Shown: one piece after another, positions 2,897-37,283 of the stretch | How positions within the stretch are numbered: the stretch's first letter is position 1 | Layout: the number at the start of each line of letters is the position of its first letter | NCBI GenBank assembly: GCA_015056245.1 | Contig: SVGQ01000010.1 | Span: 1-43,486, forward strand | DNA length: 43,486 nt | Direction: 5' to 3' | Origin: Clostridiales bacterium | GTDB lineage: Bacteria; Bacillota; Clostridia; Christensenellales; Aristaeellaceae | Notes under the pieces: generated by a model | The model's input: the letters and a program-made list of their open reading frames with translations, nothing else | Database searches by the model: none | Told to the model about the DNA's origin: nothing | Position numbers and translations under genes: made by a program

Positions 2897-3652
2897 TCAC
2901 TTCACCGTGAATGTATCCGTATCCAGCAATTCACCATCCACATAGACCGCAACTTCATATTTTCCGCTGGGGATGCTGCCGGTTTTCTCGATCATCTGCT
3001 CAAAGGATTCGTTCATATCCGCCATCACCTGCCAGAAGCCATTGCTGTCTTCATGGATGGTCATCAAGGCATTTTCGGCTGTCATATGGCCGGTGGGCGA
3101 TTTGACGACCGTCAGCGCAATGCAGGTAATATCATCACTGTACACATTGTGGCGGAAATCCACCTTGATCACAAAGCGATTATCATCCAGCATATCTTCG
3201 ATTTTGCTGGCGGTCAGATCGGTGGCATAATTGTAGCGGTAATCGCCCTGTACGGAATCCGGACGGAAATAGGCCAGATTGACATCGTACAGGCGCAGGC
3301 CGTAGTCTTCAAACTCGCCCGGCACAGGCTGGGAATACATGCCCAGATCCACCGTACTGGTATCAAAATCATTCATTACGCCCACCATATAGGTTTCACC
3401 CGGCACCATATTCAGAATGGTGTAGGAGGATTCACCGGATACCTGATCCGCATACAGGGTGCTGCCCGTATTCAGGTAGTCCTCCTGCGCCCAGATGATG
3501 GTGGAGGTATTGCCAAGGGGATTGTTGAACTCCACCGTTACAAAGCCGCCCAGACCTTCCTCCACGGAGATCAGCTCCACAGACCCCTCCGCCATTGCAC
3601 AGGCAGGGATCAACAGTGCCAAAGCCAACAGGAACATGATGATTTTTTTCAT
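2897..3652 (-). CDS. Secreted protein of unknown function
   Basis: A 251-residue protein that I do not recognise. It opens with a clear signal peptide (two Lys, a run of Leu/Ile/Phe/Ala, then ACAMA|EGS, with cleavage near residue 21). The mature part is acidic, beta-rich and low in Cys. A segment near residue 60 (YTILNMVPGETYMVGV) resembles a fibronectin-III/Ig-like strand pattern, and the last 40 residues (SGKYEVAVYVDGELLDT) look like a second beta sandwich. The ATG at 3652 is chosen over an upstream in-frame codon because AAGGCGG lies 7 nt before it and the signal peptide starts there. It is probably an extracytoplasmic protein. No neighbour suggests its task. Confidence 0.75.
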   Translation of the reverse strand: MKKIIMFLLALALLIPACAMAEGSVELISVEEGLGGFVTVEFNNPLGNTSTIIWAQEDYLNTGSTLYADQVSGESSYTILNMVPGETYMVGVMNDFDTSTVDLGMYSQPVPGEFEDYGLRLYDVNLAYFRPDSVQGDYRYNYATDLTASKIEDMLDDNRFVIKVDFRHNVYSDDITCIALTVVKSPTGHMTAENALMTIHEDSNGFWQVMADMNESFEQMIEKTGSIPSGKYEVAVYVDGELLDTDTFTVK

Positions 3653-14624: not shown

Positions 14625-14661
14625 AATCACCAGCCAAAACAAGGATAACCTGTTGTCACTG

Positions 14662-15077
14662 TGTGGATGAACATCAGGAAACCCGCTGCCTGAAATGGAT
14701 TCATTTTCAAAGGGCAAGTTTTCCACATCCTATGAAAATGTGGAAAACCCATTTTCTGCGGTTCTGCTTTTCTGCTTTGACTGCTATCGGCTGTCGATAT
14801 ATGCCGCATGGTTTTTGGATACAAAAGCAGGAAAATCCCATTCTTACGGCGAAAACTATATAGATAATCCGCTGGCAGGCTACAACCTGCTCCTTGTGTA
14901 TGCCCGCGGATTTTACGCCGCAAGAGAACTGCTTCGCTTGCTCGTGGCTGAGGATCTGTCCCTTCCTGTGGAAAACCAGCCCCTTTTTCAAGCGTCAATC
15001 CACAATTCCCAGCCAGCTTTCCATAGGCATTTTTCCTGACAGATCAAGCTAAAGACCATTTTTCCACGTTTTCCACA
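14662..15077. promoter_or_regulatory. DnaA-box cluster upstream of dnaN (candidate oriC)
   Basis: Eight sites resembling the DnaA box TTATCCACA occur in 416 bp without a gene. They are TCATCCACA (minus strand) at 14662-14670, TTTTCCACA at 14719-14727, its reverse at 14739-14747 and at 14967-14975, CAATCCACA at 14996-15004, TTTTCCACG at 15060-15068 and TTTTCCACA at 15069-15077. The pair at 14719/14747 forms an inverted repeat, and a further weak match lies near 15016. The repeated TTTTCCACA form suggests the local DnaA preference. The whole 14625-15142 interval lacks a believable gene. Confidence 0.72.
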
Positions 15078-15115
15078 CCCCCTACTACTACTACTAACTA
15101 TATATACTACTACTA
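15060..15115 (+). other. DnaA-box pair, C-tract and DnaA-trio (origin unwinding module)
   Basis: Two abutting DnaA boxes (15060-15077) are followed by CCCCC at 15078-15082. Then come CTA trinucleotides: five in phase from 15082 to 15096, one at 15098-15100, a TATATA stretch, and three more at 15107-15115. On the other strand this is 3'-GAT repeats. The order box-box, GC-rich spacer, trios is that of the DnaA-trio basal unwinding system described for bacterial origins. It ends 27 bp before dnaN. Confidence 0.72.
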
Positions 15116-15142
15116 CAGAATGTAGGTTTGGAGGTTCCTGAT

Positions 15143-16258
15143 ATGAAGTTTGAATGTGCTGCCCAAGACCTTGTTTACGGATTGGTCAACGCTACCCGTG
15201 CACTTTCGTCCCGTCCCGCCATGCAGATCCTGGAAGGTGTGCTGGTGCGCACCGAGGAAGAGGGCATTTCCATCCTGTGCAGCGATGGCAGCCTGAGCAT
15301 CAAAGCCGATGTAAAGGCGCAGGTGACCACTCCCGGCGAAGTGGTACTGCCGGGCCGTTTGCTCACCGAGATTATCCGCAAGCTGCCGGAAGGCACCGTT
15401 TCCTTTGACATGAACGACAAGATGGCAGTGACCATCCGCTGCGGTCAGAGCCGTTCCACCATTACCGGCATGCCTGCTGATGAATTCCCCCAGATGAAGG
15501 ACCTGATCAACACCCATGCCATGCACTTCCCCCAGAAGAAGCTGCGGGACATGATCAGCAAGGTGACCTTCGCCATCGCATTGCAGGAAAGCCGTCAGGC
15601 GCTGACCGGCTGTTTGATGGAGATGACCCCCACCGAACTGCGTCTGGTGGGTCTGGACGGTTTCCGTCTGGCGCTGCAGGTATATCATGATGATTTCGTG
15701 CTGCCTGAGGGCAAGAGCGAGCTGAAGGCTATCGTGCCCGGCCGCGTCATGACCGAACTGAGCCACATCATGACCGATGACAACGCCATGGCCACCTTCC
15801 ACTTTGATACCACCCACATGATGGCGGTGATGGGCAACATTACGCTGGTGACCAGCCTGCTGGCAGGCGAGTATATCAATTACCGTCAGATCCTGCCCTC
15901 CAACTGGCTGACCCGCGTTTCCGTAAAGCGTAAGGAACTGCAGGAAGCCATTGAGCGCGCCAGCCTGATGGCAAAGGAAGGCAAGAACAACCTGATCCGC
16001 ATGAAGGCTACGGAAGGCAACCTGAAAATCACTTCCAACAGCGAGCTGGGCGATGTGCTGGAAAATCTGGACGCTCATCTGGAAGGCGAGGAAATCGAGA
16101 TCGCCTTCAACAGCCGCTATATCAGCGATGTGATCAAGAATGTGGATGAGGAATGCTGCACCCTGAGCATGAACACCAGCGTCAGCCCCTGCGTCATTTC
16201 TCCTCTGGAGGGCGAAAGTTATCTGTATCTGGTGCTGCCGGTAAGGGTGTATAACTGA
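15143..16258 (+). CDS. dnaN: DNA polymerase III sliding clamp (beta subunit)
   Basis: A 371-residue beta clamp, the ring that tethers the replicative polymerase to DNA. The three clamp domains are recognisable: MKFECAAQDLVYGLVNATRALSSR at the start, the ATFHF... and LLAGEYINYRQILP segment in the middle, and the C-terminal SPLEGESYLYLVLPVRVYN that closes nearly all DnaN proteins. The ATG at 15143 has GGAGG 8 nt upstream; a TTG 15 bp earlier is also in frame but precedes that site. Unusually the gene stands alone. dnaA is not upstream (a crh-like gene is), and recF/gyrB do not follow (a strong terminator and an opposite-strand gene do). The DnaA-box region is retained directly before it. Confidence 0.97.
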   Translation: MKFECAAQDLVYGLVNATRALSSRPAMQILEGVLVRTEEEGISILCSDGSLSIKADVKAQVTTPGEVVLPGRLLTEIIRKLPEGTVSFDMNDKMAVTIRCGQSRSTITGMPADEFPQMKDLINTHAMHFPQKKLRDMISKVTFAIALQESRQALTGCLMEMTPTELRLVGLDGFRLALQVYHDDFVLPEGKSELKAIVPGRVMTELSHIMTDDNAMATFHFDTTHMMAVMGNITLVTSLLAGEYINYRQILPSNWLTRVSVKRKELQEAIERASLMAKEGKNNLIRMKATEGNLKITSNSELGDVLENLDAHLEGEEIEIAFNSRYISDVIKNVDEECCTLSMNTSVSPCVISPLEGESYLYLVLPVRVYN

Positions 16259-28951: not shown

Positions 28952-31900
28952 TCACAGTTCTGTCAGCTCACCGGTGATCACCTTACCCAGCCGGAGGGAG
29001 TACAAACCACACCGCCGTACTTTTCGCCCGGTGGCTTTTTCCAGCGCCTGCCGGTAGAGACTCAGCTGCAATTGATACCGCTGCCACAGTTCCTGCGGGT
29101 CGTTCACATAATCCGTTTTGAAATCCAGCAGCACCCATTCCTCCTCTTCCAGATAGCACAGGTCGATGACCCCCTGCACCATGGTTTCCATGGGCTGATG
29201 GATTCTCAGATTAAAGGGCCATTCACGGCGAATTTCCTTACTGTGCAACATGTTGCGGCCTTCCTGTGAGGTCAGGAATCGGGCTGCCATTTTCACATCA
29301 GCAACAGAAGCCTCCTGAATCGAAAATCTTCCGGTAAGACGAAGATTCTCCCGATGAGCTTCCAGAAAATCGATTACATTGCCTTCTATGAGCGATTGCC
29401 TTGCAGCCTCGATGGAAATGGTGCTCAGCAACAGATGCGTGCACACACCCCGCTGGATCGCGGCATCCTCCTGCCGGGGCAGAAGAAATTCCGGCTTCTG
29501 GGGCAGTGAACCAAGCAATTTCGGCGGGCGGGTCATCAGGGGATACCGTTTCCGCTCAGGCGTGTCTTCCTCCGGATCCACCGGCCCAGATTCCGCAATG
29601 GCTCTGCACAGCGCTGTCACGCCAACTTTCAGCGGCACTGGTTGCTGCGGTCGAATGGGCGTCAGCGGATCGACTACGTTGGAAACCGTCGGCAGAATAT
29701 TGTCGAAAGGAAGCATATTTACACCGAAATCGGTATTGACTTTTTCCTGCAGCTGTGAGTCGCTTGATTCTGCTGTGTCAATGTGGAAAACGACCCTCCA
29801 AACCCCACTTTTTTGTGGAAAACATGTGGGAACTGTGGATGAAGATCGCATTCCACACATTTCCCACATGGAAGATGTGGAAAACATGTCCATGATCATC
29901 TGCTGCGACTGAATCTCTCGCGCCATCTCTGAAAGGCTCGCATCACTTGCATTTTGACTGCTTTCAGATAAGTCTGAATGCATTTCTTCCTTTATATATG
30001 GTTTCTGTTTGGCAACGGGATCAGATTCATCCGCAGAATGATTCTGCAATTCTTCTTCATTGACGGTTTGCAGCAGCCAGTCAGAAAGCGTCTTTGCATT
30101 GCGCACCATGGACAGCTGACCACCCATCTGCCGTTGCTGGATCCAATGGGCGGATTCTTGCTGTGTGGTATCATTGCAGCCTACCATCACCAGTCGATTC
30201 TTGGGACGGGTCATGGCAACATACAGCACGCGGGCTTTCTCTGCCCTTGCTTCTGCCTTTATGCGCATATCGATCACATTCTGCAGCAGTGTAGCGCGTT
30301 TGGTTCTGGCGCCTTTGTTCATATACATCAGCGACAAGCCAAGCTGCGGATGCATGCTGATACTCTTGGTCAGGGTGCGTTTCAGGATGGGATCCTCCAT
30401 CCCCATCAAGTAAACCGTAGGGAACTCCAAGCCCTTGGATTTGTGAATGGTCATGATGCGCACCACATCTTCCCATGGATTGACCACAGTTGGCGACGTG
30501 CTGTCCCCGCCCTGATGCAGCGTGCTGAGAAATCCTGCCAGTCCTTCTGTATGTGCCTGCGCATATTCCCCTGCTTTGTGGCACAGCATGCGAAGATTCG
30601 CCTGACGCAGTTTACCCCCGGGCTGACATCCATAATGGGCATACAGGCCACTGCGCATGAGGAAGTCCCACAAGTATTCCTCCACCGGCATGCTGCGGTA
30701 CAGGAAGCGCTCTTCCTCCAGCATATCCAGCACGCTCTGACAACGGCGGCGAAGCTCGTTGTTTTCTTGCTGTTTCGTGCAGGCCATCAGCGCATCCAGA
30801 TAAGTACTGTCGTGATCCGGCAGGTGCAAACGGATCTCTGTCAGCTCCCGCTCGCTCATATCAAACAACGGGGAACGAAGCTCCGCGATCAAGGCCAGAT
30901 CGTTCCGCAGGTTATCCAGCAGCATCAGATGCTGACAAACCTGCTGCACCTCTTCCGAGCCCATGGCATTCATAGCTGCATCCACATAAACCGGAATGCC
31001 CGCTTTCACCAGCTCGGCTTCCACTTTATCCGCCACACCCTTGACCACGGGCAGCAGAATCACAATGTCACGATAGTGAAGGGGAGCGCCCGGATTGCCT
31101 TCACTGTCCAACTGCGGCTCGCCCACAGTACGCTGGATATCTTCCGCGATCAGCTGCGCCTGACGAAGGATCCTTTCTCGCTTGGGAACATTGCCGATGA
31201 TGTGCAGTTCCGTGATAGGATCTCCCTTGGACGGCTTCCCCGGATACAGCATGGCTGATTCATCGTAGTCGATCTCCGTAACCCGGCTGTCCATCACATG
31301 CCGGAACACCCGGTTAACGGAATCAAGAACCGTCTCTCGACTGCGGAAATTTTTGTTCAAAATGATCCGCCGCTGCTTTGCCTGCGCATCATCAGAGAAG
31401 GATGCCAGCTTGCTCAGGAACAGGGTGGGTTCTGCCTGACGGAAACGATAGATGCTCTGCTTCACATCGCCTACGTAGAAGAAGAACTGGGTACCGTCCT
31501 GCCGCTTCAGTCCATTCAGGATCGCCTCTTGAATCGCGCTCACATCCTGATACTCATCCACGAATACTGCATCAAAACGGCTGGATTCCAATTGACTCAG
31601 TTCGGGATCTGCCAGCACCTCAAGGGTCATGTGTTCCAGATCACCAAAATCCAACACAGCCCGTTCCACCTTCCGGCTGCGGAAGTCCTCATGCAGGGCT
31701 TCCATCAGCCAGCAAAGCCCCCGAATGGCTGGACGCATCTTCTCCATATCTCCAAGGGCGTTGTCCAGTCTGGCAGGCAACACTTTTTTCAGTTCCTTCA
31801 AACAGCCTTTATAGTTTTCCCGGATGGCCTTGAACTGCTCTGCCAGGTCGGCTCCATCAGTGGTTTCCGGCTTCACACGAACCAGCGTGGCAAACTTGGT

Positions 31901-32710
31901 ACTGCCAACCAATTGACACAGCATGTCCAGACTGGACTTGGCGCTGTTTTCCAGTTCCGTCAGCGTGATAAAATCGGCGCTGATGGTCTGCTGATATTTT
32001 TCCGGAAACGCTGGCTCGTTCAGCAGGGCTTTGCCATGCCGCCACTGCACAAGGGCATTGTCGATCAGCAGTGCGCATTCATTGAGCAGCGTTTCGCACA
32101 GCGGATGGTGCTGCAACGTTTCCTGATTCCATTCCTGCTGTGCCTGCTCCCTGAGCCATCCCATGGGATCAGGACGGGTCAGCAAGAATTGATACAGCAG
32201 ATCCATCACGACCACCAGATTCTTTTCCGGCAGCACAGTCAGCAACGCTTTCAGATCCGCATTCTCCTTGGCAGCAGCATAGGCGGCATCCAGCACTTCG
32301 TTCATGCTTTCCTGATACAACTGCTTGGTGGTTCGGTCATCCGCCATGGTGAACTGAGGGTCCACTCCGCAATGACGGAATTGCTCCCGCACCACCTTCT
32401 GACAGTAAGAATGAATGGTACTGATCTGCGCACGATCCAGCAATTCAATCTGTTTTGCCATTTGAGGCTCCTGCCTTGCTGCTGCCTGCAAGCGCAGTTC
32501 CAGCCTTTCCCGAAGCTCGGCTGCTGCGGCACGTGTATAGGTAACCACCAGCATCCGATTCATATCGATGTGATGATCCCGGATCAGGCGAAGAATCCTT
32601 TCCACCAATACGGCGGTTTTGCCGCTGCCAGCTGCCGCAGAGATGAGCAGTTCCTGATTATCGGCTTGTATTGCATTCTGTTGTTCCTGTGTAAAACGAA
32701 CATCAGCCAT
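28952..32710 (-). CDS. addA: ATP-dependent helicase/nuclease subunit A
   Basis: A 1252-residue AddA, the UvrD-type helicase and nuclease subunit that processes double-strand breaks and feeds RecA. Walker A is SAAAGSGKTA (about 24-33), Walker B is VFVDEYQD, and the helicase motifs VGDVKQSIYRFRQAEP and VRIMTIHKSKGLEFPTVYL are intact. The C-terminal RecB-like nuclease motif is LLDFKTDYV. The length is typical. The ATG at 32710 has AGGAGG upstream. The partner addB, usually next to it, is not in the window: parS sites and glgP lie upstream. The stretch coding for about residues 940-1000 is Ser/Met/Glu-rich, poorly like AddA, and carries a cluster of DnaA-box-like sequences. Confidence 0.96.
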   Translation of the reverse strand: MADVRFTQEQQNAIQADNQELLISAAAGSGKTAVLVERILRLIRDHHIDMNRMLVVTYTRAAAAELRERLELRLQAAARQEPQMAKQIELLDRAQISTIHSYCQKVVREQFRHCGVDPQFTMADDRTTKQLYQESMNEVLDAAYAAAKENADLKALLTVLPEKNLVVVMDLLYQFLLTRPDPMGWLREQAQQEWNQETLQHHPLCETLLNECALLIDNALVQWRHGKALLNEPAFPEKYQQTISADFITLTELENSAKSSLDMLCQLVGSTKFATLVRVKPETTDGADLAEQFKAIRENYKGCLKELKKVLPARLDNALGDMEKMRPAIRGLCWLMEALHEDFRSRKVERAVLDFGDLEHMTLEVLADPELSQLESSRFDAVFVDEYQDVSAIQEAILNGLKRQDGTQFFFYVGDVKQSIYRFRQAEPTLFLSKLASFSDDAQAKQRRIILNKNFRSRETVLDSVNRVFRHVMDSRVTEIDYDESAMLYPGKPSKGDPITELHIIGNVPKRERILRQAQLIAEDIQRTVGEPQLDSEGNPGAPLHYRDIVILLPVVKGVADKVEAELVKAGIPVYVDAAMNAMGSEEVQQVCQHLMLLDNLRNDLALIAELRSPLFDMSERELTEIRLHLPDHDSTYLDALMACTKQQENNELRRRCQSVLDMLEEERFLYRSMPVEEYLWDFLMRSGLYAHYGCQPGGKLRQANLRMLCHKAGEYAQAHTEGLAGFLSTLHQGGDSTSPTVVNPWEDVVRIMTIHKSKGLEFPTVYLMGMEDPILKRTLTKSISMHPQLGLSLMYMNKGARTKRATLLQNVIDMRIKAEARAEKARVLYVAMTRPKNRLVMVGCNDTTQQESAHWIQQRQMGGQLSMVRNAKTLSDWLLQTVNEEELQNHSADESDPVAKQKPYIKEEMHSDLSESSQNASDASLSEMAREIQSQQMIMDMFSTSSMWEMCGMRSSSTVPTCFPQKSGVWRVVFHIDTAESSDSQLQEKVNTDFGVNMLPFDNILPTVSNVVDPLTPIRPQQPVPLKVGVTALCRAIAESGPVDPEEDTPERKRYPLMTRPPKLLGSLPQKPEFLLPRQEDAAIQRGVCTHLLLSTISIEAARQSLIEGNVIDFLEAHRENLRLTGRFSIQEASVADVKMAARFLTSQEGRNMLHSKEIRREWPFNLRIHQPMETMVQGVIDLCYLEEEEWVLLDFKTDYVNDPQELWQRYQLQLSLYRQALEKATGRKVRRCGLYSLRLGKVITGELTEL
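29782..29884. promoter_or_regulatory. DnaA-box-like cluster inside addA
   Basis: Within 103 bp of the addA coding region lie TGTGGAAAA (reverse of TTTTCCACA) at 29782-29790, 29814-29822 and 29876-29884, TGTGGATGA at 29834-29842, plus weaker TGTGGGAAC at 29825-29833 and TTTCCCACA at 29860-29868. Both the TTTTCCACA and the TCATCCACA forms recur in the cluster before dnaN. Confidence 0.55.
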
Positions 32711-32820
32711 GATACCCCTCCTGCCATTCTCTCCTACGAAGCATATATAAAGGAAAGAACAGTTGCTATGTAGATTGTACATGAACCGCCCTGTTAACGC
32801 AAGATGGAATGCAAAGCCAA

Positions 32821-32836
32821 TGTTTCACGTGAAACA
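32821..32836. promoter_or_regulatory. parS centromere site 1
   Basis: TGTTTCACGTGAAACA, a perfect 16-bp palindrome identical to the ParB/Spo0J-binding consensus. Confidence 0.95.
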
Positions 32837-32865
32837 CTAAAAGACCATTCCGCAATCACACTGCA

Positions 32866-32881
32866 TGTTTCACGTGAAACA
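32866..32881. promoter_or_regulatory. parS centromere site 2
   Basis: TGTTTCACGTGAAACA, identical to site 1, starting 45 bp after it. Confidence 0.95.
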
Positions 32882-32912
32882 TTCAAAACTGCTATGAGAG
32901 CATACAGTGAAT

Positions 32913-32928
32913 TGTTCCACGTGAAACA
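32913..32928. promoter_or_regulatory. parS centromere site 3
   Basis: TGTTCCACGTGAAACA, the other common form of the parS consensus, starting 47 bp after site 2. The remainder of 32711-33093 holds the glgP promoter and no gene. Confidence 0.93.
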
Positions 32929-36071: not shown

Positions 36072-36929
36072 ATGGAAAAATTCCTGAAGCTTACCTACTA
36101 CTATAATAGTGGGTTCTCGGTTCAGGTGGGAGGTACCCTGCTGATCTTTGACTACTGGGAGGGCGAGGATCGTTCGCTGCCCCCCCACAGCCGGATCTCG
36201 GAAACCTTCCTGCAGGCTTTCGAACAGATCTACGTGTTCGTCAGCCATGCCCACCCGGATCATTTTGATCCGGTCATCTACACTTGGTACAAGCACGGCC
36301 TGCCGGTGAGCTATATCGTCAGCCACGATATGCCGGTGGGTACTCGCGGCAGCCGCCTTGCCCCCTTGCAGGAGAAGCAGCTGACGCAGGATATCAAAGT
36401 GAAGGCCTTCGGCAGCACCGATCTGGGTGTCAGCTATCTGGTGACGGTTTACGGCATGACCATCTTCCATGCCGGTGACCTGAACCTGTGGCACTGGCGC
36501 TCTGAAAGCACCCTCAAGGAGATCGAAGAAGCGGAAGAGCGTTTCTACGAATGCATGGCTCCCCTGAAACAGGAAAAGATCGATGTTGCCATGTTCCCGG
36601 TGGATCCCCGCCAGGGCAGCATGTACGATGCGGGCGCCAACCACTTTATCATGACGGAAAAGCCCCGGGTGTTCATTCCCATGCACTGGCAGGACCGCCC
36701 GGAAGTATCCCTTGAATATGCACGCCGCGCCAGAAATCCGCAGACAGAAGTGATCGCTCTGACCCGGGCTGGCACCATCGCCAACCTGAGCTTCTCTGAG
36801 GAAGTACTGGATATTCATATCATCGAACCGCCCAAGGAATTGGATGAGCAGCTTTATCCCCTGCGCAAGCCCGGCGGTGCCGGTGCAGATCCTTTTGCGG
36901 ATACTGACTTGCCGGTGAATCTGTCGTAA
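36072..36929 (+). CDS. MBL-fold metal-dependent hydrolase
   Basis: A 285-residue metallo-beta-lactamase-fold protein of the UlaG/UPF0173-like branch. Metal ligands are visible: His59-x-His61-x-Asp63-His64 in SHAHPDHFDP, then His133 and Asp136 in FHAGDLNLWHW, and a late His in FIPMHWQ. The substrate is unknown; related proteins are hydrolases of lactones, phosphodiesters or nucleic acids. No signal peptide is present, so it should be cytoplasmic. The C-terminal 25 residues are Gly/Pro/Asp-rich and probably disordered. The ATG at 36072 has GGAGG 11 nt upstream; an in-frame GTG at 36054 overlaps that ribosome site and is less likely. Confidence 0.85.
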   Translation: MEKFLKLTYYYNSGFSVQVGGTLLIFDYWEGEDRSLPPHSRISETFLQAFEQIYVFVSHAHPDHFDPVIYTWYKHGLPVSYIVSHDMPVGTRGSRLAPLQEKQLTQDIKVKAFGSTDLGVSYLVTVYGMTIFHAGDLNLWHWRSESTLKEIEEAEERFYECMAPLKQEKIDVAMFPVDPRQGSMYDAGANHFIMTEKPRVFIPMHWQDRPEVSLEYARRARNPQTEVIALTRAGTIANLSFSEEVLDIHIIEPPKELDEQLYPLRKPGGAGADPFADTDLPVNLS

Positions 36930-37267: not shown

Positions 37268-37283
37268 TGTTTCATGTGAAACA
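37268..37283. promoter_or_regulatory. parS-like site with one mismatch
   Basis: TGTTTCATGTGAAACA differs from the parS consensus by one central base (CATG for CACG). It lies 18 bp before the start codon of the EAL gene, 4.3 kb from the three perfect sites. Confidence 0.65.

What the first reader, a model, noticed from the sequence alone, without database searches (positions are those of the whole stretch)
14662..15142. Candidate replication origin: DnaA boxes, C-tract and DnaA-trio before a solitary dnaN
Seen: two abutting boxes TTTTCCACG and TTTTCCACA are followed by five C and then nine CTA trinucleotides in two groups, plus several further boxes upstream. Known: this order (boxes, GC-rich spacer, 3'-GAT repeats) is the DnaA-trio unwinding module of bacterial origins. 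Odd: dnaA is absent; whiA and a crh-like gene are upstream and recF/gyrB are missing downstream. Inference: the origin or half of a split origin stayed with dnaN while dnaA moved.
Basis: partly seen in the sequence, partly recalled or inferred. Interest (0 to 1): 0.85.

Follow-up and report, generated by a model that had tools for sequence, protein, structure and literature searches.

The report
Replication origin left by its dnaA
In a group of uncultured gut Clostridia the chromosome's replication start appears to have stayed beside the gene dnaN while dnaA, the gene for the protein that opens it, moved far away and took the other half of the origin along.

Summary
Two abutting DnaA boxes, a CCCC spacer and CTA repeats (15060-15115) precede dnaN. 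All 14 close relatives fetched share this module. A pattern search of 396 genomes gave 15 hits, all 48-237 bp upstream of dnaN, and no control hits.

dnaA lies on another contig. In three near-closed genomes of the same family it is 1.21-1.32 Mb from dnaN, about three quarters of the way to the expected terminus. GC skew turns at dnaN in three large genomes and one same-genus contig, but is weak or unclear in this window and in three close-relative contigs. All 25 parS-like sites in ten family genomes lie within 23 kb of dnaN; three perfect ones are in this window.

Among 40 genomes in a tree the split needs one change (support 78/94). A DnaA-box cluster without trios went with dnaA, so a bipartite Clostridia-type origin was cut in two. 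An extra DnaA-box cluster lies inside addA. Verdict: new variant of a known kind; origin firing is inferred, not measured.

The parts
15060..15068 (+). distal box of the pair, TTTTCCACG (1 mismatch to TTWTCCACA)
   Evidence: first 7 bases invariant in 15 aligned rows
15069..15077 (+). box next to the trios, TTTTCCACA
   Evidence: last 8 bases invariant in 15 rows
15078..15081 (+). 4-base G+C-rich spacer (CCCC)
   Evidence: always 4 bases in the 15 rows, letters vary
15082..15096 (+). five DnaA-trios, CTA on this strand (3'-GAT-5' on the other)
15097..15115 (+). A+T-rich stretch and second, more variable CTA group; presumed duplex-unwinding stretch
   Evidence: unwinding inferred
14719..14727 (+). 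upstream DnaA box, exact
14739..14747 (-). upstream DnaA box, exact, inverted
14967..14975 (-). upstream DnaA box, exact, inverted
14662..14670 (-). upstream DnaA box, 1 mismatch
15143..16258 (+). dnaN, sliding clamp
   Evidence: three Pfam domains; only PF00712 match in the genome
32821..32928 (.). three parS sites (32821, 32866, 32913), each matching TGTTNCACGTGNAACA fully
   Evidence: the four sites of the genome at up to 1 mismatch are all on this contig
37268..37283 (.). fourth parS-like site, 1 mismatch
29782..29884 (.). second DnaA-box cluster (3 exact, 2 with 1 mismatch) inside the addA-like gene
28952..32782 (-). addA-like gene (UvrD helicase and PD-(D/E)XK nuclease domains) that holds the cluster

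Best explanation
15060-15142 is the unwinding half of the chromosome origin (the counterpart of incC/oriC2 between dnaA and dnaN in Bacillus and Clostridioides). DnaA made elsewhere binds the two boxes, extends as a filament over the trios and opens the A+T-rich stretch before dnaN; ParB binds parS close by. An ancestor had dnaA - unwinding module - dnaN. In the lineage of this genome dnaA left with its own upstream box cluster (the oriC1-like half, probably now a promoter and autoregulatory site), and the half beside dnaN went on as the origin. Shown: module, its conservation, separation of dnaA, skew turn at dnaN in relatives, parS clustering, boxes at dnaA. Inferred: DnaA binding, unwinding, initiation here, and that the dnaA-side boxes no longer act in the origin.
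For: Conserved in 14 of 14 close relatives. Fifteen hits in 396 genomes, 15 of 15 upstream of dnaN on its strand, 0 control hits. Outside the window's genus a matrix of the module has its best hit before dnaN in 18 of 20 split loci; 16 of these score 13.6 or more, above every background hit seen (highest 8.2). Skew: G382 20 of 20 samples fit an origin at dnaN; G179 turns from minus to plus at dnaN in 1-kb steps, with one of its 20 samples against; G035 turns at about 65 kb, dnaN at 64.3 kb, dnaA at 16.6 kb; G347 (same genus) has its cumulative minimum in the 75-80 kb bin, module at 79.9 kb. The dnaA contig of G221 is negative in 8 of 8 samples, with no turn at dnaA. 25 of 25 parS-like sites of ten family genomes are within 23 kb of dnaN. 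dnaA side: 2-8 boxes and no trio run in 27 of 27.
Against: Cumulative skew of the window has its minimum near 35-37 kb, not at 15 kb. G221's dnaN contig shows no clear turn. In G399 there is a local minimum at the module but the lowest value of the contig is at its other end, and G396's dnaA contig has no steady polarity. In G179 the 20-kb sample 39 kb past dnaN is still negative. The module is degenerate in genera g3, g4, g9 and g13, and in g6 it has another form. The parS control pattern also hit 5 times in 15 genomes. No read depth, binding or unwinding data.
Confidence: 0.9

Rival explanations
1. The origin still needs both halves: the dnaA-linked boxes act with the module by long-range contact, so the origin is bipartite across 48 kb to 1.3 Mb.
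For: Boxes at dnaA are kept in 27 of 27 loci; both halves are stated to be essential in vivo in B. subtilis (PMC6669920, passages) and melting in vitro needed both in C. difficile (PMC7561715, passages).
Against: Such distances have no precedent that I know of (recalled), and autoregulation of dnaA explains its boxes more simply.
Confidence: 0.05
2. The boxes and CTA repeats are only a regulatory leader of dnaN, and the chromosome starts elsewhere.
For: The module sits directly before dnaN and its start codon in 15 of 15 pattern hits.
Against: Skew turns and parS sites mark the same place in four genomes of three genera; box, 4-base spacer and trio order matches the published module.
Confidence: 0.03
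3. dnaA and dnaN only look apart because of fragmented or mis-binned assemblies.
For: The window's genome has 189 contigs and 81% completeness; 22 of 32 family genomes have the two genes on different contigs.
Against: In four large assemblies and in G399 both genes lie on one contig 48 kb to 1.32 Mb apart; 15 kb upstream of dnaN are present here without dnaA.
Confidence: 0.01

Closest known systems
B. subtilis incC / basal unwinding system (BUS)
   Same: two boxes, short spacer, CTA-type trios, before dnaN (PMC6669920 and PMC8287927, passages)
   Different: there dnaA lies directly upstream and incA/B beyond it; here dnaA is far away
C. difficile bipartite oriC1/oriC2
   Same: trios in the half before dnaN, boxes without a clear trio in the half before dnaA (PMC7561715, passages)
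   Different: the halves are only a dnaA gene apart there
Cyanobacterial dnaN-side oriC (Synechococcus elongatus, Cyanothece)
   Same: oriC beside dnaN, dnaA encoded separately, TTTTCCACA boxes (PMC7198777, PMC4674748, PMC6323995, passages)
   Different: another phylum; the passages I saw do not describe a split bipartite origin with a trio module
B. subtilis DnaA-box clusters outside oriC
   Same: DnaA-box groups near the origin (PMC5295017, passages)
   Different: the one found here lies inside a coding gene, addA; function untested

Membership tests
DnaA-trio / BUS unwinding module | DnaA box or boxes, spacer, then trios with middle A on the bound strand | tested here: met
   rules as in PMC8287927 passages
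DnaA-trio / BUS unwinding module | DnaA-dependent strand opening | not testable with these tools
   needs purified DnaA or a living strain
Chromosomal oriC | minus-to-plus GC skew turn at the site | tested here: met
   met in G382, G179, G035, G347
Chromosomal oriC | skew turn in the window itself and other same-genus contigs | tested here: inconclusive
Chromosomal oriC | parS cluster near by | tested here: met
Chromosomal oriC | read-depth or marker-frequency maximum | not testable with these tools
   no reads held
Bacillota-type bipartite origin around dnaA | dnaA between the two box clusters, next to dnaN | tested here: not met
Bacillota-type bipartite origin around dnaA | second box cluster upstream of dnaA | tested here: met
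   27 of 27 dnaA loci with 2-8 boxes in 400 bp

The most novel reading that the evidence does not exclude
Cutting the bipartite origin made initiation depend on one half, and in one branch a new DnaA-binding site arose inside the coding sequence of addA near the origin to do the job of the lost half (holding or delivering DnaA), while dnaA itself, copied late in each round at about three quarters of the arm, became a position-based timer of initiation.
Probability: 0.12. Interest if true: 0.8.

Novelty: new variant of a known kind. Interest (0 to 1): 0.62.

Why it matters
Evolution has done the experiment of taking dnaA out of a bipartite origin. What stayed together (unwinding module, dnaN, parS) and what scattered (dnaA, rnpA, parB) points to which parts must be in cis. 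It makes testable whether the dnaA-side half is part of the origin or only dnaA's promoter. It also warns that placing the origin at dnaA, a common practice (recalled), would miss it by up to 1.3 Mb in these genomes and would upset growth-rate estimates from read depth.

Tried and rejected
Origin at dnaA: rejected, no skew turn at dnaA in G382, G179, G035 or G221. Contig-break artefact: rejected. Using the window's own skew: uninformative. dnaA neighbourhoods were compared in 24 genomes to see whether dnaA landed in one place: neighbours are shared within genera, and one small gene family (c2) recurs in seven genomes of g1, g4 and g7, but no common site for all emerged; the ORF picking was crude. 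ORFs 29978-31258 and 31298-32773 (+) were first taken for genes; they lie antisense to addA and have no Pfam match. A strict trio search missed degenerate modules in G035, G179, G212, G284, G311 and G374, so a weight matrix was used; G212 and G243 still fail. Among linked genomes G391 has only a weak hit at -376, and G201 and G274 none as best hit. Literature: a search for Christensenellales with oriC found 0 papers, and two phrase searches gave 0; I did not establish from a call that the genome belongs to that order.

The count of one split holds only for the 40 tree rows. G131 (family f10) has the module and dnaN on contig C29 and dnaA on C22. Of 24 dnaA loci of other families among the 30 fetched, 18 have dnaN beside them, 3 end at a contig edge, and 3 (G286, G027, G006) show no dnaN in the about 1 kb after dnaA. 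So the separation may be older or repeated. G365 and G155 were labelled split although no dnaN was found in them at all. Two rows of the tree have odd composition and four have long branches.

Full report
What is there. The intergenic stretch before dnaN (14625-15142) carries two abutting DnaA boxes, a 4-base spacer, five CTA trios, an A+T-rich stretch and a second CTA group, with four more boxes upstream. Six boxes with up to 1 mismatch compare with a shuffle mean of 0.24 (maximum 2 of 500; mononucleotide shuffles). (CTA)3 or longer occurs at three places in the window: two here and one at 36095.

Conservation. A scan with DnaN found 17 loci: 14 with DnaN 73-96% identical and 3 distant ones. 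All 14 close ones have the module 66-77 bp before dnaN. Across 396 genomes of the order a pattern with up to 2 mismatches hit 15 times, once per genome, and its reversed control never; all 15 lie 48-237 bp upstream of a dnaN on its strand. A matrix built from 15 rows of the close group has its best hit upstream of dnaN in 18 of 20 split loci outside the genus. Sixteen of these score 13.6-58.7; G035 (3.0) and G374 (-2.1) are weak; G243 and G212 miss. The best score at 20 dnaA loci is 4.4.

Where dnaA is. In the window's genome it is on contig C100, dnaN on C118. In the sampled family (34 genomes) dnaN was found in 32: in 6 it is directly beside dnaA, in 4 on the same contig at 48 kb (G035) or 1.21-1.32 Mb (G179, G284, G382), in 22 on another contig. 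In G399, whose DnaN is 91% identical, both are on one contig 102 kb apart in opposite orientation. Ten of ten genomes checked from other families have them adjacent (G004, G067, G331, G045, G017, G033, G031, G054, G126, G152). On a DnaA plus DnaN tree of 40 rows the label needs one change, support 78/94, 78% of 200 bootstraps. Cases outside the tree suggest that it may not be the only one (see Tried and rejected).

Where replication starts. Twenty 20-kb samples of G382: 11 from 1.03 to 2.73 Mb are negative and 9 from 2.90 Mb round to 0.86 Mb positive; dnaN is at 2.744 Mb, the point opposite it at 1.05 Mb, dnaA at 1.424 Mb. G179: 12 negative and 8 positive, turn at dnaN (1.671 Mb) in 1-kb steps, but one sample just beyond it is negative. 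G035: turn between the 62.5 and 67.5 kb bins, dnaN 64.3 kb, dnaA 16.6 kb. G347, same genus: cumulative minimum in the bin 75-80 kb, module at 79.9 kb. Against: the window, G221 C10, G399 and G396 give no clear or only local signal. If the origin is at dnaN, dnaA lies 78%, 74% and 75% of a half-chromosome away in G382, G179 and G284 (positions; arithmetic mine; G284's skew was not sampled).

parS and the old neighbourhood. In 15 genomes every parS-like match (up to 1 mismatch) is within 23 kb of dnaN, counting G126 across its contig end; ten of these genomes are of the family and hold 25 sites. The reversed control pattern gave 5 sites. In G382 rnpA is at 2.91 Mb and the best ParB match at 1.87 Mb; in G033 and G031 dnaA, dnaN, rnpA and parB lie within 15 kb. 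So module, dnaN and parS stayed together while dnaA, rnpA and parB dispersed.

The other half. In 27 of 27 split dnaA loci examined, 400 bp upstream of dnaA hold 2-8 boxes with up to 1 mismatch, often a close pair near -100, and no run with an exact CTA trio. In B. subtilis and C. difficile the origin is bipartite with the trios in the dnaN-side half (PMC6669920 and PMC7561715, passages). The simplest reading is that dnaA carried the upstream half off and that the dnaN-side half alone is the origin.

A further element. The addA-like gene 28952-32782 holds 3 exact and 2 near boxes at nt 2899-3001 between its helicase and nuclease domains, in three reading frames. The same stretch in relatives: at least 2 exact boxes in 15 of 17 genomes of genera g1 (with G399), g4, g7 and g10, in 0 of 9 other split genomes and 0 of 6 linked ones examined. 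The stretches were not of equal length, and the genomes G129, G293, G212, G004, G201, G264, G274, G331, G391 and G031 were not examined. A 32-bp box spacing recurs in 7 of 7 close-group genes. Codon-shuffled genes with a cluster gave a mean of 0.04-0.14 exact boxes (maximum 2 of 100). It lies 14.7 kb from the module here and about 4 kb in G347. Boxes in several frames of a variable linker suggest selection on DNA; its role (DnaA titration, or help to the origin) is open.

Known or new. Origins beside dnaN with dnaA elsewhere are known from cyanobacteria (PMC7198777, PMC4674748, PMC6323995, passages), and the module is widespread (1755 of 2070 origins; PMC8287927, passages). For Firmicutes the context rnpA-rpmH-dnaA-dnaN is described as conserved (PMC7561715, passages). 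I found no report of this split, but my ten searches of one open-access library were narrow. Two relatives are titled Candidatus Limiplasma, placed by NCBI in Clostridia, Eubacteriales incertae sedis.

Noticed in passing
window 29782-29884: DnaA-box cluster inside the addA-like gene, conserved in place in genera g1, g4, g7 and g10 and absent from the other genomes examined.
   Followed up: partly
window 32821-32928 and 37268: Three perfect parS sites and one with 1 mismatch, between addA and glgP and beyond; in G035 parS also lies beside glgP.
   Followed up: yes
G131 C29 (L077) and C22: A genome of another family with the module before dnaN and dnaA on a different contig: possibly a second, independent separation.
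   Followed up: no
L003 10827-11321: Small ORF without Pfam match divergent from dnaA; the family c2 that recurs beside dnaA in seven genomes of g1, g4 and g7 looks similar by eye, not by a test.
   Followed up: no
G338 C56:21276-25031 and G142 C112: The addA matches of these relatives contain one stop codon each; real or assembly error not checked.
   Followed up: no
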